Below, piece after piece: positions 44,880 through 58,453 of a DNA stretch of 64,000 nt. Below the pieces are notes generated by a model. It was not told the DNA's origin, searched no databases, and saw only the letters and a list, made by a program, of their open reading frames with translations. Within the stretch, counting starts at the first letter, position 1. Each line of letters begins with the position of its first letter. A program made the position numbers and the translations under genes. The DNA is from Salinigranum salinum (GTDB lineage: Archaea; Halobacteriota; Halobacteria; Halobacteriales; Haloferacaceae). The stretch is from NCBI RefSeq assembly GCF_009176545.1, contig NZ_VTOJ01000001.1, forward strand, positions 1,178,001 through 1,242,000. Direction: 5' to 3'.

Positions 44880-46520
44880 ATGTCGGGACACACACTCGAC
44901 GGCGAACCCGACGCGGCCGCGACACCCGTCGGAGACCACGCCGAACGCGACCTCCTGAGCGAACTCAAGCGGACGCTCTCGGTGCTCCGTGGTGGACAGT
45001 TCGAGGTTCCCCCGCTTCGACCAGGTACCGACGGCCCGCTGAGCCGCTTTTCCGTCCCCGCGAACAACGAGGAGGTCGAACGCTACTGGGTGAACGCGCC
45101 GTTCGCGTACGTGGTCGTGACGTACGACACGGAGGCGAGCGAACACCTGTATCACGTGGTCGAACCCGACCTCGATGCCTCCGAGTCGGCCCTCCTCGCG
45201 CGCATCCGGCGCGACATCCGCGAGCCGCTCCTCTACCACGACGGCGCCGACCCCACCGGCGAGCAGACGCTCCGGACGGAGCTCGCGTCGGTGCTCGGCG
45301 AGTACGGGATCGACGTCGCGCCCGCCACGTTCCACACCTTCCTCTACTACCTCCTCCGCGACTTCCGGGGGTACGGGCGGACGGATCCGCTCATGCGCGA
45401 CCCACACATCGAGGACATCTCCTGCGACGGCTACGACCTCCCCATCTTCGTCTACCACGACACCTACACGGACATCGAGACGAACGTCGCCTTCGACCGC
45501 GAGGCGCTGGACCACTACGTCGTCAGGATGGCCCAGCGATCCGGCAGACACATCAGCATCGGTGACCCCGTCATCGGCACGACGCTCCCGAACGGGTCAC
45601 GCGCCGAACTCGCGCTCGGCGAGGAGGTCACGCCGCGGGGCTCCGCGTTCACCGTCCGGATGTACGCCGACGAACCGTTCACGCCGATCGACCTCGTGCA
45701 GTTCGGGACGTTCTCGATCGAGCAGATGGCGTACCTGTGGCTCTGTATCGAACACAACCGGTCGCTCATCTTCGCCGGCGGGACGGCCTCGGGGAAGACC
45801 ACGTCGATGAACGCCGTCTCGATGTTCATTCCGCCACGTGCGAAGGTGCTCAGCATCGAGGACACCCGCGAACTGTCGCTTCACCACGACAACTGGCTCT
45901 CCTCCGTGACGCGACAGCGGCTCAACGAGGGGACCGACATCGACATGTACGACCTCCTCCGTTCGGCTCTCAGACACAGGCCGGAGTACATCATCGTCGG
46001 CGAGGTCCGCGGCGAGGAGGCCGTGACGCTGTTCCAGGCGATGAACACGGGACACACGACGTTCTCGACGATGCACGCCGACAGCGTCGAGACGGTCATC
46101 AACCGGCTCGAGAACGAGCCGATCAACGTCCCCCGACCGATGGTGCAGTCGCTCGATCTCCTCTTGGTGCAGACGCTCACCAGACTGGACGACGAACGGG
46201 TGCGACGGTCGAAGACCATCGGCGAGGTCGGGAAGATCGACCAGCGGACCGGCGAACTCGACTACGCGAGCGCGTACTCGTGGAACGTCGAAACGGACAG
46301 CTTCGACCGCCACGACAGCACGCTGCTCGACGAGATCCGTCGCGACCGCGGGTGGACGCAGACGGAACTGCGCCGCGAACTGCGAAACCGCGAACGGTTC
46401 CTCCGCGTCCTCGCAGATCGGGGTGTGAACGATTACCGGCAGTTCACCGCGCTCGTCAACGAGTACTACGCCCACCCCGACGAGGTCCTCGAGTGGCTCG
46501 ACGCCGCCCAGGAGCCGTGA
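44880..46520 (+). CDS. Type II/IV secretion system (PilB/GspE-like) ATPase
   Basis: A 546-residue assembly ATPase that powers archaeal type IV pilus or related filament assembly at the inner face of the membrane. The N-terminal domain (about 60-280) precedes the RecA-like core: Walker A FAGGTASGKTTSMNAV (near 298-312), Asp-box LSIEDTRELSLHHDNW, Walker B YIIVGEVRGEEAVTLFQ and His-box TGHTTFSTMHADSVETV. The gene for the membrane platform protein starts seven bases later. No pilin or prepilin peptidase gene is in the window. Confidence 0.93.
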   Translation: MSGHTLDGEPDAAATPVGDHAERDLLSELKRTLSVLRGGQFEVPPLRPGTDGPLSRFSVPANNEEVERYWVNAPFAYVVVTYDTEASEHLYHVVEPDLDASESALLARIRRDIREPLLYHDGADPTGEQTLRTELASVLGEYGIDVAPATFHTFLYYLLRDFRGYGRTDPLMRDPHIEDISCDGYDLPIFVYHDTYTDIETNVAFDREALDHYVVRMAQRSGRHISIGDPVIGTTLPNGSRAELALGEEVTPRGSAFTVRMYADEPFTPIDLVQFGTFSIEQMAYLWLCIEHNRSLIFAGGTASGKTTSMNAVSMFIPPRAKVLSIEDTRELSLHHDNWLSSVTRQRLNEGTDIDMYDLLRSALRHRPEYIIVGEVRGEEAVTLFQAMNTGHTTFSTMHADSVETVINRLENEPINVPRPMVQSLDLLLVQTLTRLDDERVRRSKTIGEVGKIDQRTGELDYASAYSWNVETDSFDRHDSTLLDEIRRDRGWTQTELRRELRNRERFLRVLADRGVNDYRQFTALVNEYYAHPDEVLEWLDAAQEP

Positions 46521-46527
46521 AGCCGGC

Positions 46528-48660
46528 ATGGTCCTCCACTACCTCCCGCTGGTCGCCGTCTGTGGGCTCTGTCTCGTCGTCGTGCTCACCCCCGTGAGCA
46601 CGACCGCCGATCGGCTGGTCTCGCTCGTCGCGTTGCGGCTCTTCGGCGACTACGTCTCCCGCGAGACCGACCGCCGAGACCGCGAGCTCGAGCGGATGCG
46701 GGCCGCGCACGTCGGCGGTACCCACCGCCGGTTCGCCGCTCGGACGATGCTCGTCTCGCTCGTGTTCGGGATCACGGGCGCCGTCGTCGGCGTCTACGCG
46801 GCTGCCGGTGTTCTCTCCGTGCTCTCGGCCGAGCCGACGGCCGTCCGCGAGTCGGCGCCCCCGATGCTGGGCGTGCTCGGCGATCTCGCCCGACTGTCGG
46901 CGATCGACCTCGGGCGACTGTTCGTTGTCACCGCCGGGGTGAGCCTCACCGTCGGTCTCCTGCTCGCGGTGATCGGCTACTGGTCGCGGTGGGTCTACCT
47001 CGGTCAGGTGGCACACGCCCGGCGGAACGCGATCGACGCGTCGCTCCCCCGGACCGTCGCGTTCGTCTACGCGCTGTCGCGGTCGGGGATGCCGTTCCCG
47101 TCGGTGCTCACGACGCTGGCGAAGAACGAGCACGTGTACGGCGAGGCCGCCCGCGAACTGGCCGTCGCCGTCCGCGAGATGAACGCGTTCGGGACCGACG
47201 TCGTCTCCGCGCTGGCCACCACCGGCGAGCGGACGCCGAGCGACGATCTCGAGGAGTTCGTCGAGAACCTCGGGAACGTCCTCTCGAGCGGCCGGAGCCT
47301 CTCGTCGTTCCTCCGGCTGCAGTACGAACGCTACCAGGAGGCGGTTGAGGCCCAGCAGGACAAGTATCTCGACCTGCTGGCGGCGTTCGCCGAGATCTAC
47401 GTCACCGTCCTCGTCGCGGGGCCGCTGTTCGGTATCACGGTGCTCGTCGTCATCGGTCTCGTCATCAGCGACACGACGCTGCTGATCCAGCTCATCACGT
47501 ACCTCGGCATCCCGCTCGCGAGCGCTACCTTCATCGTCTACATCGACAGCATCACAGAGGCGCTGCGCGGGCCGGGGTGGCAGAGCGCGCTCGACGTCGC
47601 GAACGACGAGGTTCCGGACCGTCGCCTCGTCGCGGCCGACGCGTCGCTCGCCGCCGACGGCGGCCACGCGGCCGCCGACCGGACGACGCTCGCCCGTCTC
47701 GACGCGTACGACCGGCTCGAACCGCTCCGTCGCTGGCTCTCCGACCCGTACGAACAGCTTCTGCGGCGACCCACCGCGACGATCTACTTCACGCTGCCAC
47801 TGATGCTGCTCTGGTTCCTCTTCCGGATCGGCTTCGAGCGGGCGTCGCCGTCGCACGTGGCCGCCGTGCTCGGATCGCTCTCGGCGCTCGACCTGACCAC
47901 GGTCGTCACCCGGTTCGACGGGCCGCTCATCGAGGCGTCGATCGTCATCCTCGGTGGGATCTCGCTGGTCTACGAGGCGCGGAAGCGTCGGTACCGGAGT
48001 CTCGAAGACGCGACGCCCGACTTCCTCGACCGGATGGCGAGCGTCAACGAGGCGGGACTGACCGCGATCGAGAGCATCCACAAGATCGCACGGACGGATC
48101 TCGGCTATCTCGGCGAGGAACTGCAGCGTGCCTCGCATGACATCTCGTGGGGTGCCGACGCGTCGACGGCACTGCGGCGGATGGCCAACCGGAGCCACGC
48201 ACCGTCGCTCCGACAGTCGATGACGCTCATCACCAACGCGATGACCGTCAGCGGCGACATCTCTCCCGTGTTGCGGATCGCCGCCAACGAGGCACAGAGC
48301 GCGCGGCAACTGCGTCGCGAGCGCCGGCAGGAGATGGTCATCTACCTGCTCGTCATCTACCTCTCCTTCTTCGTCTTCCTCGGCATCATCGCGGCACTGA
48401 CCGTCTCGTTCATTCCCGCGATCGAGGAGGCGGGTCGCTCTCCGGTGCTCAACAACGGTGCCGTCTCCGTCGGGATCTTCGCCGGACTGCGCGACGTCCA
48501 GACCGACGGCTACCGACTCCTGTTCTTCCACGTCTCGGTCGTTCAGGCGGCGTGTTCCGGGCTCATCGCGGGACAGCTCGGGGAAGGGAGCGTCTACGAC
48601 GGGCTGAAACACGCGACGATCCTGCTGATCCTCGCGTACGGCCTCTTCGCCGTCCTGTGA
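46528..48660 (+). CDS. Type II secretion system F (PilC/TadC-like) membrane protein
   Basis: A 710-residue platform protein with two T2SSF domains, each containing pairs of helices (VAFVYALSRSGMPFPSVLTT in the first; FLDRMASVNEAGLTAIESIH in the second) and about nine membrane segments overall. It anchors the ATPase and extrudes pilins. It follows the ATPase gene by seven bases in a two-gene operon. The length fits the double-domain archaeal PilC form. Confidence 0.92.
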   Translation: MVLHYLPLVAVCGLCLVVVLTPVSTTADRLVSLVALRLFGDYVSRETDRRDRELERMRAAHVGGTHRRFAARTMLVSLVFGITGAVVGVYAAAGVLSVLSAEPTAVRESAPPMLGVLGDLARLSAIDLGRLFVVTAGVSLTVGLLLAVIGYWSRWVYLGQVAHARRNAIDASLPRTVAFVYALSRSGMPFPSVLTTLAKNEHVYGEAARELAVAVREMNAFGTDVVSALATTGERTPSDDLEEFVENLGNVLSSGRSLSSFLRLQYERYQEAVEAQQDKYLDLLAAFAEIYVTVLVAGPLFGITVLVVIGLVISDTTLLIQLITYLGIPLASATFIVYIDSITEALRGPGWQSALDVANDEVPDRRLVAADASLAADGGHAAADRTTLARLDAYDRLEPLRRWLSDPYEQLLRRPTATIYFTLPLMLLWFLFRIGFERASPSHVAAVLGSLSALDLTTVVTRFDGPLIEASIVILGGISLVYEARKRRYRSLEDATPDFLDRMASVNEAGLTAIESIHKIARTDLGYLGEELQRASHDISWGADASTALRRMANRSHAPSLRQSMTLITNAMTVSGDISPVLRIAANEAQSARQLRRERRQEMVIYLLVIYLSFFVFLGIIAALTVSFIPAIEEAGRSPVLNNGAVSVGIFAGLRDVQTDGYRLLFFHVSVVQAACSGLIAGQLGEGSVYDGLKHATILLILAYGLFAVL

Positions 48661-50893: not shown

Positions 50894-50964
50894 GCGCCGG
50901 TGGTCTAGTGGTAGGACCTGAGCCTTCCAAGCTCATGGCCCGGGTTCGAATCCCGGCCGGCGCA
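50894..50964 (+). tRNA. tRNA-Gly (anticodon TCC)
   Basis: A full cloverleaf of 71 nucleotides: acceptor GCGCCGG pairing with CCGGCGC plus discriminator A; a D arm in GTCTAGTGGTAGGAC; anticodon stem TGAGC/GCTCA with loop CTTCCAA (anticodon TCC); T arm CCGGGTTCGAATCCCGG. CCA is not encoded. No intron. Its 3' half is the attachment core of the element that follows. Confidence 0.97.
50919..50964 (+). other. attL: tRNA-Gly 3' half (attachment core)
   Basis: These 46 bases, from the anticodon stem to the discriminator, recur at 56551-56596 with one mismatch (G versus A in the T stem). A tRNA gene restored on one side and a 3' fragment on the other is the standard outcome of tyrosine-integrase insertion. 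Confidence 0.85.
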
Positions 50965-51203
50965 TTCTGCGAGGAACGGACGTGACGAGCGAATGCGCCC
51001 CGAAGGGATTCGAATCCTGCCAGTCGCGCGCAGCGAGGCACGAGCGAGCACGTCTGGCTCCGGTTCGAATCCCGGCCGGCGCATTCTGCGAGGAACGGAC
51101 GTGACGAGCGAATGCGCACCGAAGGGATTCGAATCCTGCCAGTCGCGCGCAGCGAGGCACGAGCGAGCACGTCTGGCTCCGGTTCGAATCCCGGCCGGCG
51201 CAC
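50943..51203 (+). repeat. 119-bp tandem repeats built on the tRNA-Gly 3' end
   Basis: Unit 1 spans 50943-51061, unit 2 51062-51180, and a 23-base partial unit runs 51181-51203. Each unit starts with the tRNA tail (ggttcgaatcccggccggcg) and continues into about 95 bases of unrelated sequence. The two full units differ at only one or two positions (gcgccccgaagg versus gcgcaccgaagg). The partial unit ends where the A+T-rich element begins, so the repeats form a ladder of attachment-like ends. The stretch from 50965 to 51370 holds no gene. Confidence 0.85.
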
Positions 51204-51370: not shown

Positions 51371-52061
51371 ATGATAATTCGACAAGAAGAGACGGTGTGC
51401 GGTGTGAAGCCGGTTTCGAAACATGCCCAGAAGCAGTTGAATCTGCGACAAGTTGAGGACTACCGCAGTCACCGGAAGCAATTGATCCAGTGGATGGCTC
51501 AATTGGGTAAAGACCCTGAGAAAGCGGAGGGGTACGCCAGTGAGACGGTAAAACAGCGTGCGTACCGTTTGGACAGGTTTTACCGCCGGGTGTGGAACGA
51601 ACAGGAGGAAGGATACACCACGCGGATGAGTATATGCGGTATCTCGCGGTTCAGGACCACTCGTTGAGTTACAAGACTTCGATGCAGAAGGCGGTGAATA
51701 CTCTGTTCAAGTTCCAGGACTTCAAGAACAAGGAGGACGCCGGTTGGGAGCCGGAGATCAAGTTCAACAATGACTCCACAAGCCATAACCCGCGTGGCTT
51801 CTTGACTGACGTGGAGCGCCGGAAGCTCCGTGAGGCCAGTCTTGAACATGGTTCTGTCCCACACTACAGTTTGGTCACTTCTGAATAGCGTGATTGCTGG
51901 AAAGCATACTCGCACAGCGGTTCGGGAAGCCGAAAGATGAGATCGGGTTGAGTGACTGGGAACGTGCGAACAGCTTCAAAATCCCTTCCTTGGTGAATAC
52001 GAGTTTGGATGCAGGTCTTCGGCCTGTGGAGGTGGCTTGTGCAAAGGTTTCGTGGGCGTGA
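51371..52061 (+). pseudogene. Tyrosine (XerC/D-like) integrase, frameshifted and truncated
   Basis: Haloarchaeal phage-type integrase sequence spread over three frames. Frame from 51371: the N-terminal SAM-like domain (LRQVEDYRSHRKQLIQWMAQ, KDPEKAEGYASETVKQRAYR). A shift near 51605-51625 leads to HADEYMRYLAVQDHSLSYKT and RGFLTDVERRKLREASLEHG, ending in a stop at 51886-51888. A further shift leads to LAQRFGKPKDEIGLSDWERA and LVNTSLDAGLRPVEVACAKV, containing the first catalytic Arg. The sequence is then cut off; the HxxR and Tyr catalytic parts are missing. It cannot encode a working recombinase. Confidence 0.85.
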
Positions 52062-52327: not shown

Positions 52328-53257
52328 ATGGAAATAACAGACAAGAATTTCATAGCAGAATACGATTTATCAATGCATAATATAATACCAAGAGTTAAGT
52401 TGGAGGCAGACCCCTGTCAGGACATGATTGAGGAGTTGGAAAAGCAAGCACGTCGATATCAGGAAATTCAAGACGAACTCGGCTCAATTCAATCTCAGTT
52501 GCAGGAAGCAAGGAGTGAAAAGTTCGGAACAGACTCCTCGGAGACAGAAGAGCGTGCCCGTGCGTTTTTCGCGGATGTAACTGATAACGGTGGTGAGATT
52601 GAGGATATTGACGAGTTAAAAGAGAAATTACGGCAGACACAAGCTGAACGTGAAACAACGAGAGACAAGCTTTGGGATCTGTTGAAGAACTTCCAGCTTC
52701 CGCTTGATCATTCTATCAAGCAGACCGATGATGGACTCGTAATGTTCCCTTACGACCGGGAACTCACTCCTGAGGTCACCCAAAGCATCGAAGACGTCCT
52801 TACCGATGTAGATCTCACAAAAAATGGGGTTCAGATGGGCCAGAACGCGGTCATTGCCGACACGGACGATGTAGAAGAGGCGATGGACATGGTTCAGAAC
52901 AGAATCGATAAAATCCGTGCCAGCGCCAACATCCGTGGCGAAATCGATCAAGAAGTAGAGAACCTCCGCAGTCGAGATGAGAAACTCGTGAAGGCACTAT
53001 ATGTATTACACAAAGAGGAACACCCTCTGTCGAAAGCTGAACTCGAGGATCGTATCGAAGTGGAGGACGGCGCACTACGAGGTGTGCTCTACTATTCGTT
53101 CAAAAACGACGAGTATCTGACAAAGAACGGAAAGGAATTCTCGCTCTCCGAACTTGGTGAGATGGTAATGGAGCAGTACGCTCAGCATTACAACCCCTTC
53201 TCCGACAGCACTGACGCGGGACCAGACACAGATACCACCCAGGAGGAACTTGCATGA
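52328..53257 (+). CDS. Cassette protein 1: coiled-coil/winged-helix protein
   Basis: A 309-residue acidic protein of unknown function, first of four overlapping genes. Coiled-coil-forming segments are at about 32-65 (MIEELEKQARRYQEIQDELG) and 93-120. A middle domain (about 125-200: DDGLVMFPYDRELTPEVTQS) is followed by a C-terminal winged-helix-like part (about 215-285: DEKLVKALYVLHKEEHPLSK; EYLTKNGKEFSLSELGEMVM). The wing (KNGKEFSLSELGEMVMEQYA) resembles the C-terminal wing of proteins 2-4 (TDGVYSLSTVGKYLLREYAE), so it may be a distant relative. Its stop overlaps gene 2 by four bases (ATGA). A+T-rich base use. Confidence 0.8.
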   Translation: MEITDKNFIAEYDLSMHNIIPRVKLEADPCQDMIEELEKQARRYQEIQDELGSIQSQLQEARSEKFGTDSSETEERARAFFADVTDNGGEIEDIDELKEKLRQTQAERETTRDKLWDLLKNFQLPLDHSIKQTDDGLVMFPYDRELTPEVTQSIEDVLTDVDLTKNGVQMGQNAVIADTDDVEEAMDMVQNRIDKIRASANIRGEIDQEVENLRSRDEKLVKALYVLHKEEHPLSKAELEDRIEVEDGALRGVLYYSFKNDEYLTKNGKEFSLSELGEMVMEQYAQHYNPFSDSTDAGPDTDTTQEELA

Positions 53258-54162
53258 CAGAACCTGTAGACAACGAAGAGAAGAACGACATACCAAAAGA
53301 TGAACTCCCAATTCGAGACCTAGTAGATCAATATTTTGAGGCCCTGGATAGCGATATCGATAAAGAGAGACGCTCAGAGATTACTGAAACCATCGAGGCT
53401 CTAGAGGTCCGTCACGAGAAGTTCGTTAGAGAGTACGGTGACGACGACCCCGAGACAGTTGATCTAAGAAAACGTATAGACGAACTCACTGAAGAGCAAG
53501 AACAGATTGATATCTCTGAACGACGGGCAGAGGTACTCGCCGATGAAATAGCCGAGAGAGTAGTTGGCTTTCGACTGACCGAGGAATGGCTGGACGGCCG
53601 AGTGCTTGAAGGAGTTAACCATGTGCTTGTGGGAGAACGTGAACCGCAACTCCTTGTGGAGGGTGTGCGGGTTGACGAAGAACTCGATGCGTCCTCATTA
53701 GATGAAATCCGCCGTCTCGATCTAATCGACACGGTTCGACAGCTGGCAAAAGACCGGCTTGGCACGAGTACCGAGGCAGGCGATGTCTGGAACTCGATTC
53801 AAGGAAGTTCCTACGAGGTGCCCTTCTTGACGGTGGCTACTGAGGGTGAAGCCACTGCAAAAGATGTTCTGAGCCATGTCGATGAGGATATTTCTCGAGA
53901 TACTGCTGGAGCCAGACTCCGAAATGCATCCAACAAGCTCAGCATGAATCCATACTTCCGGACTGATGGAGTGTATTCGCTTTCAACTGTAGGAAAGTAT
54001 CTTCTCCGGGAGTATGCTGAATACACAGACGACGATCTGACTGAGAAGAGTGAGAATGTCGAGAGAGGTGAAGACGAAAAAGGTGAGAGAGACGGATCAC
54101 TCTCGTCATTCACAGATAAAATCGATCAGGTTACCGCTGACGGAGGTGACGAAGATGAGTGA
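53254..54162 (+). CDS. Cassette protein 2: coiled-coil/winged-helix paralogue
   Basis: A 302-residue protein. N-terminal helical coiled-coil region (about 20-105), then the family core LTEEWLDGRVLEGVNHVLVG near residue 108, AGDVWNSIQ near 175, and a C-terminal winged-helix wing (FRTDGVYSLSTVGKYLLREY near 235-254). An acidic tail ends GSLSSFTDKIDQVTADGGDEDE (read in two parts: GSLSSFTDKI and DQVTADGGDEDE). The shared core with genes 3 and 4 shows these are paralogues. The stop overlaps gene 3 by 8 bases within ggaggtgacgaagatgagtg. Function unknown; DNA or RNA binding through the wing is inferred. Confidence 0.85.
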   Translation: MTEPVDNEEKNDIPKDELPIRDLVDQYFEALDSDIDKERRSEITETIEALEVRHEKFVREYGDDDPETVDLRKRIDELTEEQEQIDISERRAEVLADEIAERVVGFRLTEEWLDGRVLEGVNHVLVGEREPQLLVEGVRVDEELDASSLDEIRRLDLIDTVRQLAKDRLGTSTEAGDVWNSIQGSSYEVPFLTVATEGEATAKDVLSHVDEDISRDTAGARLRNASNKLSMNPYFRTDGVYSLSTVGKYLLREYAEYTDDDLTEKSENVERGEDEKGERDGSLSSFTDKIDQVTADGGDEDE

Positions 54163-55042
54163 AGAAAGCGAGGAGAAACTAACCGGCCCTCGAATAGGAG
54201 ATCTTGCAAGAGAATATCTTGAAGCTGAGACCGAGGGTCCTGATCACAGCGAACGCCTCGCTAAGCTTCGAGAACTCCGATCAGAGCTGAAGATCCGGCG
54301 AGAGGATTACAGCGAGCGTTTCAGCCCGAGCCATCCGATCGTGAAACGGATAGATAAGAAGATTGAGTCAATAGATGCCGATATCGAGGATTTAGAGCAG
54401 GAACAGGAAGTTCAAGAGTCCCTGAGAGATGACTTTCTCAAGATTTCTGAGCAGTTTGAGCTAACTGAGGAATGGCTTCAACCGATAGCGCTTCGGGCGC
54501 TAAACCATGCACTGTATGGTTCTGAGAGGGAGGACCTGATTATCGACAAGACCCGTATCGAAACCGTAGAGGACGTGACTGAACTCTCGTATCTTGAACG
54601 GCTGGACTTCGAGGAAAAGATGCTCCGAGTGATCGAAGATGCACGAGGGAACTCATCACATACAGACGAGATCTGGGAGTGGGTCCAGCAGGAAGATCGA
54701 CTTGAGCTGTTCGCCGTTATGTCCAGCGAAGCCTCGGCCGACAAGAACCGGCTTAGCGATGTCTTAGGAATTGAATCAAAGACCGCGAAGAACAGGGTTG
54801 AGTACCCTATCTATCAGCACGGGCCAGAGCTTACACCCTACCACAGTGAGGGCGGCACCTACAGGCTCACTACACCAGCACGGTATGTGGCAGCGAAGCA
54901 CGGTCCATTCGAATATAATGAAATGGAGAAAGAGGTGGAAGAAACTGCGACCGGGGAAGACGAAGGAACGCTCTCGTCTTTCGCTCAGGTTGATGATCAG
55001 GGAGACGAGGTTGCGGTAGATGGAGGTGATGTGGATGAGTAG
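54155..55042 (+). CDS. Cassette protein 3: coiled-coil/winged-helix paralogue
   Basis: A 295-residue paralogue of proteins 2 and 4. Coiled-coil N-terminal region about 30-100 (IKRIDKKIES-type heptads: VKRIDKKIESIDADIEDLEQ). Core LTEEWLQPIALRALNHALYG near 103, DEIWEWVQQEDRLELFAVMS near 171, winged helix SDVLGIESKTAKNRVEYPIY and wing GGTYRLTTPARYVAAKHGPF near 233-252. The tail ends EGTLSSFAQVDDQGDEVAVD, echoing protein 2's SLSSF tail. Start ATG 54155 with a good ggaggtg before it; the longer in-frame ORF upstream is antisense-like and rejected. The stop overlaps gene 4 by 8 bases. Confidence 0.85.
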   Translation: MSEESEEKLTGPRIGDLAREYLEAETEGPDHSERLAKLRELRSELKIRREDYSERFSPSHPIVKRIDKKIESIDADIEDLEQEQEVQESLRDDFLKISEQFELTEEWLQPIALRALNHALYGSEREDLIIDKTRIETVEDVTELSYLERLDFEEKMLRVIEDARGNSSHTDEIWEWVQQEDRLELFAVMSSEASADKNRLSDVLGIESKTAKNRVEYPIYQHGPELTPYHSEGGTYRLTTPARYVAAKHGPFEYNEMEKEVEETATGEDEGTLSSFAQVDDQGDEVAVDGGDVDE

Positions 55043-55886
55043 CGCTGAGCGACCCGATGACGACTCGGTTGAGCGTTCGGTTGAGACGGTTGCGACGGAA
55101 TACCTTGAAGAAGTTCGTCGGGACCAAGATTCGGACAAGCGACTTCCAGAGCTCAGGTCAAGGTTGGAGGAGAGAAAGGCGATGCGAGAAGAATTCGCCG
55201 ACCGTCACGCTGAAGATAGCCCTTTTCTCCGCCGGTATGATCAGAGTATTGAGGAACTGGAAGCTGAGATCGAGGAAAAAGAAGCAAAACTACATCAACA
55301 TGGACGGCTGAAGGAGGAACTGCTGGAACTGTTCAAGGAGTTTGAACTCGCGGAACCCTGGCTGAACTTAAAAGTGCTCCAAGCGTTCAATCACGCAGTA
55401 ACTGGTAAGGAGCAAGATTCCATCGTTGTTAGTCAAATCTCAATTTGCAGTCCAGAAGATCTGACCGAAGTTGATGAGGAGACCAGGTGGCGAATTGAAG
55501 ACGAAATCGTGTGCTTGGCGACCGAGGAACAAGGCGAGGCAAATCATACCAATAAGATCTGGGAGTGGATGCAGGAGCATGATTATGACGAGGGGTTCGC
55601 AGTCGTGGCTTCAAAAAATGGGGCGAACGCTGCCCAGGTTGCAGAGGTATTAGGGCAGGAGCAGAAAGAGACGAGGAACCGTCTTGATAGGCCAATCTAT
55701 CGGCGGGATCGTTTTGTACCGTATTACAGAGTGGATGGGGAATTCAAGCTCTCGACGGCGGGCCAATATCTTGCCTCGAAATATGGTCCGTTTGAGTCAG
55801 GAAAGAACGGCAATAAGGACTCCGATAACTCTGATGACTCTGGTGATGACGGCGATGGTCAGATGAGTTTTGAGGACATGGAGTAA
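55035..55886 (+). CDS. Cassette protein 4: coiled-coil/winged-helix paralogue
   Basis: A 283-residue paralogue. Coiled coil about 30-100 (LPELRSRLEERKAMREEFAD; SIEELEAEIEEKEAKLHQHG), core ELAEPWLNLKVLQAFNHAVT near 104, NKIWEWMQEHDYDEGFAVVA near 173, winged helix AAQVAEVLGQEQKETRNRLD and wing VDGEFKLSTAGQYLASKYGP near 233-252. The acidic, Asn/Asp-rich tail ends DGQMSFEDME, again with an S-F motif. Start ATG 55035 is preceded by ggaggtgatgtg, the same junction design as genes 2/3, which suggests tandem duplication. Confidence 0.85.
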   Translation: MSSAERPDDDSVERSVETVATEYLEEVRRDQDSDKRLPELRSRLEERKAMREEFADRHAEDSPFLRRYDQSIEELEAEIEEKEAKLHQHGRLKEELLELFKEFELAEPWLNLKVLQAFNHAVTGKEQDSIVVSQISICSPEDLTEVDEETRWRIEDEIVCLATEEQGEANHTNKIWEWMQEHDYDEGFAVVASKNGANAAQVAEVLGQEQKETRNRLDRPIYRRDRFVPYYRVDGEFKLSTAGQYLASKYGPFESGKNGNKDSDNSDDSGDDGDGQMSFEDME

Positions 55887-56550: not shown

Positions 56551-56596
56551 TGAGCCTTCCAAGCTCATGGCCCGAGTTCGAATCCCGGCCGGCGCA
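56551..56596 (+). other. attR: second copy of the tRNA-Gly 3' half
   Basis: 46 bases from tgagccttccaagctcatgg to ggcgca matching 50919-50964 with one mismatch in the T stem. There is no 5' half, so it is not a tRNA gene. It marks the right end of the element. Confidence 0.85.
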
Positions 56597-56661
56597 CTCC
56601 CTGCGGTCGTCCGCCGCCCGACGTTCACCTCGCTCCGCTCGGTGAACTCCCGGCCGGCGCA
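56592..56661 (+). repeat. About 70-bp direct repeat, left copy (right copy 58147-58217)
   Basis: Aligned by eye, this block (cactccctgcggtcgtccgc ... actcccggccggcgca) matches 58147-58217 (cgctccctccggtcgtcccc ... actcccggccggcgca) with scattered mismatches. Both end in the tRNA tail ccggccggcgca. They bracket the DUF1508/beta-helix gene and overlap the right edge of attR. Confidence 0.7.
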
Positions 56662-56936
56662 TCTCCTCGAAGAACTACAGCGCGGAGTTTCGTCTCCACG
56701 CACCTCGGTTCGAGAGCGATGCGTTACGTAGGATTCGAACCCCGTCAGCCACTGTTCCGAGCGTCGACACGTGACGCGGTCCCGAAATCCCCTCTTACAA
56801 CCGCTCCCCGAGGTGATTTCTCGAAATAAAGACAATCATATTACACGTAGTAGGCGTATATCTGCGTTCGAGTTGTACACTGACCGTCATATCACGTCGA
56901 ACGGTGTGACGATCAACAGATAGGAGAAAATACACG

Positions 56937-58088
56937 ATGCCAGCTTCGTTCGAGATATACAACGACGGGAGCGGGGAGACGCGGTGGCTACTCCGGGCGG
57001 CGAACGGTCGGGTCATCGCCGACTCCGGGGAAGGGTACGCCGACAAGGCGGATGCCGTGCACGGAGTCGACCTCGTCCGTGGGCTAACCCCCTTCGCGAC
57101 GGTCGAAGACCTGACCGGCGAGGGCGAGGACCCGGCACCGGAACCGACACCGACACCGACACCGGGTCCGGAACGGTACGATCTGGGTGAACTCCCGGCC
57201 GAGCTGGAAATCAGATGGCCGGACCTGCCCACGATCGAACGGGAAGAGACGATCACGGTAACGGACGGCGATGCCGTGCGCTGTGACCAGCCCCACACTC
57301 GGTATCTGATCCAGACCGACGTGGACCGCGTGACCGTCGCCGCTTCGGACGTGGCGCTGGCGGTAGCCGACGACGTGCGCGTCGGCAGCGCGTACGTGGA
57401 GAGAGAAGTGGCGCGGGTGCACTTCGACGGCGGACGGTACGGGGGGATCGAACTGGCGGTCCCGGCCGATTTCACCACCGACCCACCGACGTGGCACGAG
57501 CCGTGGCTCGTCGAAGACGTGCTGATCGAAGGTGTGGATATCGATGCGGCCGACCGTGGACTGACCCTTCGCGGCAAGCGGATCGCCGTTCTCGGCAGCC
57601 GGATACACGCCCGTCACTATCCGCTGTGGGTCGGAGACACCAACGAATTCTGCAGTGAAGACCTCGTCGTCGTCGACAACGAGCTGGTCGCCGAGGGGCC
57701 GGAGGCGACGCTCCGCATGGTCTCCGTCCAGCGGTCGGCCGTGGTAGACAACGTGCTGTCCAATCCCCAGAAGCACAACTACCGTGTCGAAGGGCGTAGC
57801 GACCTCGCGTTCGCGGCGCGTAACACGCTGGTCGACGCTGGGCTGATGCTCGCCTCACAATCGGGGGACGACGTGGGCACTGTCTGGTTCCAGGACAACG
57901 TTCTACACGCCCAGACGGAGAGCCTGTTGAAGGTGGACGAACCGCCAGGCACCAAGCTGCGACGGTTCGTCGCCAGTGGCAACACCATCTACAGCGACAG
58001 GCACGGTTGTTTCCTGTGCATCGACGCCCCGGCAGGATGGGACGTCTCCGAACCGCGGATTCAGCCGTACCAACCGTATCGGTCGTAG
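56937..58088 (+). CDS. DUF1508 domain - Pro/Thr linker - beta-helix protein
   Basis: A 383-residue protein of three parts. Residues 4-50 form a DUF1508 (YegP-like) module: FEIYNDGSGETRWLLRAANG then GYADKADAVHGVDLV. Residues about 66-78 are a Pro/Thr-rich linker (EPTPTPTPGPE). The remainder reads as a right-handed parallel beta-helix (VEDVLIEGVDIDAADRGLTL; RIAVLGSRIHARHYPLWVGD; FVASGNTIYSDRHGCFLC), with repeated N and V/I positions. No signal peptide. Base composition is host-like, unlike the neighbouring element. Function unknown; beta-helices often bind or cleave polysaccharide. The gap from 56597 to 56936 holds only repeats and an A+T-rich promoter-like stretch near 56820-56850. Confidence 0.75.
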   Translation: MPASFEIYNDGSGETRWLLRAANGRVIADSGEGYADKADAVHGVDLVRGLTPFATVEDLTGEGEDPAPEPTPTPTPGPERYDLGELPAELEIRWPDLPTIEREETITVTDGDAVRCDQPHTRYLIQTDVDRVTVAASDVALAVADDVRVGSAYVEREVARVHFDGGRYGGIELAVPADFTTDPPTWHEPWLVEDVLIEGVDIDAADRGLTLRGKRIAVLGSRIHARHYPLWVGDTNEFCSEDLVVVDNELVAEGPEATLRMVSVQRSAVVDNVLSNPQKHNYRVEGRSDLAFAARNTLVDAGLMLASQSGDDVGTVWFQDNVLHAQTESLLKVDEPPGTKLRRFVASGNTIYSDRHGCFLCIDAPAGWDVSEPRIQPYQPYRS

Positions 58089-58453
58089 TGGCCGACAGAA
58101 CGGGGGTGTGGGAGCGAACGAGGGTGTGGGAGCGAACGGGAACCCCGGCACGCTCCCTCCGGTCGTCCCCCGGCCGACGTCCACCTCGCAGTGCTCGGTG
58201 CACTCCCGGCCGGCGCACGTCTGTCGAGCAAGCCCGCGAGCGACAGCGTCGCGTGTCGCTCGCCTTCCTTGCGTGTCGCTTCGCCTTCCGGGTGAGACGA
58301 ACGCTGGCCGTCGGCGACCGACGACCACGACCTCCGGCCGACGGCGCGTTCGTCCCGTCCCTCGCGACACTGGGTCAGTGAGACGGTTCCGTCGCGTGTC
58401 GGCCGGAGAGAACCACCACACCCCCTTTTCACGGTCGTACGCGAACACGAACC
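58089..58453. other. Intergenic region with the right direct repeat (58147-58217)
   Basis: A 365-base gap. It contains a short tandem motif near 58107-58140 (gtgtgggagcgaacg repeated twice) and the right copy of the 70-bp repeat ending in the tRNA-tail sequence. No gene supported. Confidence 0.55.

What the first reader, a model, noticed from the sequence alone, without database searches (positions are those of the whole stretch)
52328..55886. Four-gene overlapping cassette of coiled-coil/winged-helix proteins, three of them paralogues
Four genes follow each other with 4-, 8- and 8-base overlaps. Proteins 2-4 share a coiled-coil N-terminal half, a core of the form L-x-E-x-W-L...NH-x-x-x-G (LTEEWLDGRVLEGVNHVLVG / LTEEWLQPIALRALNHALYG / ELAEPWLNLKVLQAFNHAVT), an x-IW-x-W-x-Q motif and a winged-helix wing. 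Protein 1 seems a distant relative by its C-terminal wing. They are diverged yet all intact, which suggests subunits of a heteromeric complex that binds nucleic acid. I know of no described system with this layout; immunity, element maintenance or regulation are possible roles. Function is unknown.
Basis: partly seen in the sequence, partly recalled or inferred. Interest (0 to 1): 0.88.

Follow-up and report, generated by a model that had tools for sequence, protein, structure and literature searches.

The report
Mobile four-part winged-helix protein complex
A salt-loving archaeon carries, as the only intact genes recognised in a decayed mobile DNA element, four tightly linked genes for related proteins that probably assemble into one DNA-associated machine; related gene sets recur in a few distant relatives, twice beside virus-defence genes, and match no catalogued family that we searched.

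Summary
The four-gene cassette is real and intact, with overlaps of 4, 8 and 8 bases. Proteins 2-4 are paralogues; protein 1 is a distant one over core and wing. Predicted layout (p3): helical hairpin, helix/beta-hairpin core, winged helix, disordered acidic tail. No Pfam, NCBIfam, PHROGs, PADLOC, PDB-sequence or fold match explains them. The cassette is the only intact gene set recognised in a ~5.6 kb AT-rich islet at tRNA-Gly, beside a broken integrase and an Orc1/Cdc6 remnant; three of three congeners lack it. Full cassettes were found in six other haloarchaeal genomes (five contexts): one p1, then 1-4 paralogues; three of those contexts keep orthologous subunit classes in one order with overlaps 4-8-8(-8). 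The paralogues' N-terminal domain also occurs alone before type IV pilus genes and fused to REC-HalX response regulators. Two contexts are defence loci (Kiwa; Hma-type/pAgo island). I infer a co-translationally assembled hetero-oligomeric winged-helix complex carried as mobile accessory cargo, most likely antiviral or anti-element. Complex formation is supported indirectly; DNA binding and defence are inferred. The tails share a Q-x-[ST]-[LF] motif that is not a canonical PCNA box. Novel as a system; function unproven.

The parts
50894..50964 (+). tRNA-Gly (TCC), the integration target
   Evidence: ARAGORN
50919..50967 (+). left attachment-like repeat (3' end of tRNA-Gly, 49 nt); further partial copies (65% and 61%) at 51038 and 51157
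   Evidence: the repeat finder
51371..52061 (+). broken tyrosine integrase: open pieces in three frames (51371-51664, 51592-51885, 51903-52061)
   Evidence: piece 51592-51885 is 47% identical to an annotated site-specific integrase of a Natrinema plasmid (tblastn E 9e-17); frames read. Against: the two pieces scanned have no Pfam match over a cut-off, and none of the three matched an ORF of the fetched loci at E <= 0.01; the integrase motif in the last piece is my reading
52328..53257 (+). p1: coiled coil, core, winged helix (309 aa; start more likely 52424, 277 aa)
53254..54162 (+). p2: paralogue of class g2 (A), 302 aa
54155..55042 (+). p3: paralogue beside class g4 (C), 295 aa; AlphaFold2 model pLDDT 80.4
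55035..55886 (+). p4: paralogue, sister of p3 in the tree, 283 aa
55915..56133 (-). remnant of an Orc1/Cdc6 initiator (C-terminal winged-helix domain only)
   Evidence: Pfam Cdc6_C E 4.9e-14; tblastn to 14 plasmid records, most of the eight shown in that call or its first rows annotated orc1/cdc6
56551..56599 (+). right attachment-like repeat, 96% identical to the tRNA-Gly 3' end

Best explanation
The four genes are one translationally coupled operon for the subunits of a single hetero-oligomeric complex. p1 is the constant subunit; p2-p4 are paralogous subunits that duplicated and specialised. Likely mechanism: the proteins are made side by side, pair through their N-terminal helical hairpins and small helix/beta-hairpin core, and present a row of different winged helices that grips DNA (or a nucleoprotein), while the flexible acidic tails with a conserved Q-x-[ST]-[LF] motif hold a common partner. 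The operon travels on integrative elements as accessory cargo, and its most likely use is against viruses or competing elements. Shown: homology, gene layout, order and overlaps conserved in several contexts, insertion at a tRNA in the window, purifying selection in one pair of relatives, defence neighbours in two contexts. Inferred: complex formation, DNA binding, partner recruitment, the defensive role.
For: Seven full cassettes (window, L013, L014, L026, L027/L032, L028, L064), each one p1 plus 1-4 paralogues. Overlaps 4-8-8 (window, L027), 4-8-8-8 (L013, L014, L026), 8-8 (L028), 4 (L064). Tree of 24 rows: supported groups g2 (5 of 7 second-position rows), g3 (4 of 5), g4 (4 rows, L064 and p3/p4 beside them) and g5 (3 of 3); p3 and p4 are sisters, 98/96. 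p1 is homologous to the others. L013 against L014: pN/pS 0.10-0.19 in each of five genes. Layout of p3. Cassette intact beside broken integrase and Orc1/Cdc6 pieces. Islet absent in 3 of 3 congeners. Defence neighbours: KwaA/KwaB; DUF499, Fic, DUF1156 methylase, HEC-05, SNF2 helicase and pAgo. Closely spaced pairs often encode complexes in H. volcanii (PMC10666635).
Against: No experiment and no multimer prediction. Defence neighbours in 2 of 6 contexts, not the window's own; no control for how often element genes lie near defence genes, so the link may only mean shared islands. L064 lies between housekeeping genes (by reading). 19 of 20 wings measured are net acidic. No effector enzyme is shared by all loci. 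Subunit number varies from 2 to 5, L028 and L064 copies do not fall in the positional classes, and the window lacks g3 and g5, so there is no single set of subunits. Foldseek gives nothing at E <= 0.001.
Confidence: 0.4

Rival explanations
1. Element-maintenance complex: the proteins bind a centromere-like or origin region and help the element segregate or replicate.
For: Element context with integrase and Orc1/Cdc6 remnants; integrases near other cassettes (L026, L028); a weak Foldseek match of p3 to AspA, titled a centromere-binding protein (E 0.69, not significant).
Against: In the window the element's own replication and integration genes are broken while the cassette is intact; no ParA-like gene seen in the islet (by reading); L064 is in housekeeping surroundings; no relative of p3 in plasmid, phage or viral collections or of p1 in plasmid or viral ones (p1 against phages, and p2 and p4, not searched).
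Confidence: 0.2
2. Signal-output or transcription regulators: the N-domain receives a signal (as in REC-HalX proteins) and the winged helix regulates host genes, perhaps surface or pilus genes.
For: The N-domain is shared with stand-alone proteins before PilB/PilC genes and with the C-termini of REC-HalX regulators; the p1 wing resembles a haloarchaeal regulator domain (HVO_A0261_N, E 6.6e-5, below its cut-off).
Against: No receiver domain in the cassette; the 7 cassette genomes and the 6 genomes with the free or regulator-fused domain do not overlap; four coupled paralogues are unusual for regulators (general knowledge).
Confidence: 0.2
3. A simple tandem array of independently acting paralogues kept together by duplication, with no joint complex.
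For: p3 and p4 look like a lineage-specific duplicate (98/96); subunit number varies.
Against: Orthologous classes are kept in order across three contexts (L013/L014, L026, L027) and the overlaps are conserved; no full-length p1 was seen without at least one paralogue (the broken copy at a contig end, L029, cannot tell).
Confidence: 0.12

Closest known systems
REC-HalX response regulators of haloarchaea (Pfam PF00072 + PF08663)
   Same: three members carry the cassette's N-terminal domain at their C-terminus (L066, L068, L069)
   Different: the cassette has no REC or HalX domain and adds a winged helix and an acidic tail
Small proteins encoded before PilB/PilC type IV pilus genes in haloarchaea (L015, L065, L067)
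   Same: same N-domain, hhalign 99.6% over 149 columns between the profile of all seven free or fused copies and that of 16 paralogues
   Different: they lack the winged helix and tail; single copy
Hma (helicase-methylase-ATPase) and DISARM/BREX-like defence loci
   Same: in Halobacterium sp. TGN-42-S1 the cassette lies between a DUF499 ATPase and a DUF1156 methylase, with an SNF2 helicase about 6 kb away
   Different: seen near one cassette only (the others judged by reading their flanks); p1-p4 match no component
Kiwa (KwaA/KwaB)
   Same: near the cassette in L026
   Different: no homology; a neighbour only
PbeA-type / XPB-like SF2 helicases
   Same: a helicase with a PbeA match (E 4.7e-16) is divergently transcribed from p1 in L013/L014
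   Different: two near-identical neighbourhoods, counted as one; its close form is absent from the other five cassette genomes

Membership tests
PCNA-interacting proteins | PIP box QxxLxxF-like at the C-terminus (motif from PMC7776575, passages) | tested here: not met
   Q..L..[FYW] in 0 of 17 tails; a loose Q..[LIMF]..[LIVMFYW] in 7 of 17 and Q-x-[ST]-[LF] in 12 of 17, each against a shuffle mean of 0.33 and maximum 4 in 5000 (four L014 near-copies left out; related rows are not independent); FEN1 of the same genome ends QTGLDRWT
REC-HalX response regulators | receiver and HalX domains | tested here: not met
   no such Pfam match in p1-p4
Hma system | helicase, methylase and ATPase genes together, with the protein being one of them | tested here: not met
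   p1-p4 match no PADLOC model at E <= 0.001 (best: type I specificity subunit, E 0.0066, p3 residues 61-109); Hma-type genes found beside 1 of 6 contexts
Kiwa | protein is KwaA or KwaB | tested here: not met
   KwaA/KwaB are separate neighbouring genes in L026
Pbe phosphorothioation defence | PbeABCD components | tested here: not met
   among p1-p4 only p3 to PbeC, E 0.81; dnd/pbe genes not searched for genome-wide
Plasmid partition (ParA with centromere-binding protein) | ParA ATPase partner | tested here: inconclusive
   none seen among islet ORFs (by reading); trans-acting ParA not searched
SMC-associated winged-helix (KITE/kleisin) proteins | fold match and an SMC partner | tested here: inconclusive
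   no Foldseek hit at E <= 0.001, though a cohesin head chain is listed at E 0.95; SMC models match p1 and p4 far below cut-off; no SMC partner searched
Heteromeric complex | physical association of p1-p4 | not testable with these tools
   only monomer predictions are offered

The most novel reading that the evidence does not exclude
A new kind of archaeal immune machine: a hetero-oligomer of paralogous winged-helix subunits that assembles co-translationally, docks on the replication apparatus through repeated degenerate clamp-binding-like tails, and blocks or marks invading DNA; its N-domain was borrowed from, or lent to, a pilus-linked signalling module.
Probability: 0.12. Interest if true: 0.85.

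Novelty: categorically new. Interest (0 to 1): 0.6.

Why it matters
If the complex exists, it is an uncatalogued multi-subunit DNA-associated system in haloarchaea, built by repeated duplication of one coil-core-wing protein, carried by mobile elements and sometimes lodged among defence genes. It gives a compact, genetically testable target (four genes, 3.6 kb) in a group with good genetics, and it links an unnamed domain to response regulators and pilus operons, which could explain what that domain does there.

Tried and rejected
Known families: p1-p4 against Pfam, PADLOC, PHROGs and NCBIfam gave only hits below cut-off or weak ones without a cut-off, mostly in the coil or wing; so did the 16 members of A2 and 6 of A1 in Pfam. 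PDB sequences: best hits are coils (KIF21A, E 1.2e-4) and chance-level matches. Foldseek of p3 against PDB and BFVD and of p1 against PDB: nothing at E <= 0.001; the p1 model is poor (pLDDT 63.7). Collections: no relative of p3 in plasmids, phages or viral contigs, nor of p1 in plasmids or viral contigs; p1 against phages, and p2 and p4, were not searched.

Helicase as a fifth component: rejected, its close form occurs only in L013/L014 (G046 also holds two fragments at 46-56% identity). PCNA box: canonical form rejected. ESCRT-like reading (helical hairpin, winged helix, tail motif; from recall): considered, dropped because of the beta-hairpin core and the absence of a fold match. Partial p1 hits: G036 (E 1.3e-4) is the wing of a 273 aa regulator-like protein; G096 (E 1.2e-4) is the end of an 829 aa protein, where profile comparison supports only a weak wing match (hhalign 22-49%, shuffles up to 2.5%; Pfam only HVO_A0261_N below cut-off); G742 (E 2.7e-6) is a Fic-like protein with a C-terminal wing (by reading). 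Six marginal A2 hits (E 1e-4 to 1e-3, partial) and one marginal A4 hit (G228) were not followed.

Literature: nine library searches, of which two aimed at a cassette like this; their listings showed no such paper. The terms were broad, so this is weak evidence of absence. Passages were read from PMC7776575, PMC12839542, PMC4158269, PMC5847659 and PMC10666635; other papers were seen as listings only.
Full report
Observation. The four frames are intact: p1 52328-53257 (309 aa), p2 53254-54162 (302), p3 54155-55042 (295), p4 55035-55886 (283), with overlaps of 4, 8 and 8 bases. p2, p3 and p4 are paralogues by blastp (E 2e-46 to 5e-21), p1 is not (best E 0.023). Profile comparison settles p1: hhalign gives 96.0% over 202 columns, against at most 19.9% in 40 heptad-block column shuffles and 13.9% for the reversed profile; with the coil removed 94.5% against at most 1.4% in 40 shuffles. 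Against the profile of the free and fused N-domains alone p1 gives nothing (1.5%). So all four belong to one family, p1 distantly. The p1 start is probably ATG 52424, since homologues begin there.

Architecture. The AlphaFold2 model of p3 (8-row alignment, pLDDT 80.4, pTM 0.71) shows a helical hairpin (31-55, 61-100), a helix, a beta-hairpin and a helix (110-163), a winged helix (171-249) and a disordered tail (255-295). p1 is predicted less well (3 rows, pLDDT 63.7, last 61 residues below 50) but with a similar order of elements up to the wing. No library names them: Pfam, PADLOC, PHROGs and NCBIfam, PDB sequences, and Foldseek against PDB and viral models with no hit at E <= 0.001.

Islet. 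The cassette lies in 46-52% GC DNA in a chromosome that is 65-71% GC on both sides, between tRNA-Gly (50894-50964) and a 49-base copy of its 3' end at 56551-56599, 96% identical. Inside are a broken integrase (one piece 47% identical to a Natrinema plasmid integrase; no Pfam match over a cut-off for the two pieces scanned) and an Orc1/Cdc6 C-terminal remnant. In 3 of 3 congeners the tRNA locus is followed within about 80 to 320 bases by sequence that in the window lies at 58.4-59.0 kb, and p1 is absent from all three. The empty site is not exact: 1.8-2.4 kb beyond the right repeat is missing there too. The cassette is the only intact gene set that I recognised in the islet.

Distribution. The p2-p4 profile matched 19 of 392 genomes of the order: 7 with full-length copies, 6 with the N-domain only, 6 marginal and not followed. 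p1 matched 9 of 293: 6 full, 1 broken at a contig end (G264, L029), 2 partial that I take for unrelated wings. In a phylum draw p1 matched 3 of 392: own, G212, and a Fic-like protein with a wing. No relatives of p3 in viral contigs, phages or plasmids, nor of p1 in viral contigs or plasmids; the tools note that near records of the window's genome may be left out. Full cassettes: window p1+3; L013 and L014 p1+4; L026 p1+4; L027 (= L032, Halobacterium sp. TGN-42-S1) p1+3; L028 (= L033) p1+2; L064 p1+1. L013 and L014 share one neighbourhood, so I count six contexts.

Conserved coupling. Overlaps are 4-8-8 (window, L027), 4-8-8-8 (L013, L014, L026), 8-8 (L028), 4 (L064), with SD-like sequences before the downstream genes. 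In the tree of 24 rows (21 paralogues, 3 free N-domains), supported groups are g3 of four loci, g5 of three, g4 of four, and g2 of five including p2; the L028 copies fall outside these groups, L064's single paralogue falls beside g4, and p3 and p4 are sisters (98/96) near g4, so the window lacks g3 and g5. The order p1-g2-g3-g4(-g5) is kept in L013/L014, L026 and L027. Between L013 and L014 the five genes show pN/pS of 0.10-0.19 (uncorrected; 177.5 synonymous and 89.5 nonsynonymous differences), that is, purifying selection. In H. volcanii 45.2% of gene pairs spaced -8 to +10 nt encode heteromeric complex subunits, against 5.6% of pairs more than 20 nt apart (PMC10666635, passages). This is the main ground for reading one complex.

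Shared domain. The N-terminal half of the paralogues is the same domain (hhalign 99.6%, 149 columns) as four stand-alone ~160-190 aa proteins (L015, L065, L067, L070) and the C-termini of three REC-HalX regulators (L066, L068, L069). Three of the four stand-alone genes directly precede PilB/PilC genes (the ATPase confirmed by Pfam in L067; the rest by reading), and two of the three regulators have a PilB-like gene within 10 kb (by reading). A 2018 survey says that no function of HalX had been documented (PMC5847659, passages).

Tails. Q-x-[ST]-[LF] occurs in the last 40 residues of 12 of 17 paralogues (shuffle mean 0.33, maximum 4 in 5000); canonical Q..L..[FYW] in 0 of 17 (the four L014 near-copies left out). 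In H. volcanii the PIP box is given as QxxLxxFx (PMC7776575, passages), and FEN1 of the window's genome ends QTGLDRWT. The window's own p2 and p3 lack the Q and carry SLSSF/TLSSF. So a conserved tail motif exists, only loosely like a clamp-binding box.

Neighbours. L026: GIY-YIG protein, KwaB and KwaA (Kiwa), integrases. L027: DUF499 ATPase, Fic, [cassette], DUF1156 methylase, HEC-05; an SNF2 helicase (DrmD/HmaA-like) about 6 kb off and a pAgo about 20 kb off; McrB/McrC-like genes by reading only (no McrBC match). L013/L014: an XPB/PbeA-like helicase, whose close form is absent from the other five cassette genomes. L028: integrase fragment (Pfam just under cut-off) and a DinG-type helicase 2 kb away. 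L064: housekeeping (by reading). Window: nothing but the islet. So two of six contexts are clear defence loci; flanks were scanned with PADLOC only in part and I had no background rate, which limits the inference.

Verdict. A real, conserved, mobile multi-subunit cassette of an unnamed protein family. Complex formation is likely (my estimate 0.7), DNA association plausible (0.6; against it, 19 of 20 wings measured are net acidic), a defensive role the leading guess (0.35-0.4). It belongs to no known system tested here.

Noticed in passing
L015:7997-8491, L065:4117-4692, L067:3430-3915: An unnamed ~160-190 aa domain protein directly precedes PilB/PilC-type type IV pilus genes; the same domain ends REC-HalX regulators in L066, L068 and L069.
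   Followed up: partly
window 44880-48660: The window's own PilB-like and PilC-like genes (by reading) lie some 4 kb before the cassette, without the unnamed domain protein.
   Followed up: no
window 50936-51173: A 119-base tandem repeat carries partial copies of the tRNA-Gly 3' end just inside the islet; similar partial copies follow the tRNA in congeners.
   Followed up: partly
window 56600-58440: The stretch after the right repeat, with a 383 aa frame at 56937-58088, is also missing at this place in the three congeners: a second insertion or a lost segment.
   Followed up: no
L013:7859-12006 against L014:7781-11928: Cassette genes differ at 13-25% of synonymous sites while the adjacent helicase differs at 4%, which suggests cassette exchange by recombination.
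   Followed up: partly
L029:9071-9599: A p1 relative broken into two frames at a contig end.
   Followed up: partly
L027:6855-7712: The last gene of this cassette ends in SDE-stop, an end typical of genes coupled to a following one, as if a fifth gene had been lost.
   Followed up: no
L071 and L027 (Halobacterium sp. TGN-42-S1): A dense defence island: pAgo/PprPIWI, SNF2 helicase, DUF499 ATPase, Fic, DUF1156 methylase, HEC-05, and by reading a Rad50/Mre11-like pair and McrBC-like genes.
   Followed up: partly
L030:9459-11948: An 829 aa protein with an apparent P-loop and a C-terminal wing weakly like that of p1, in what reads like a run of membrane-protein genes.
   Followed up: partly
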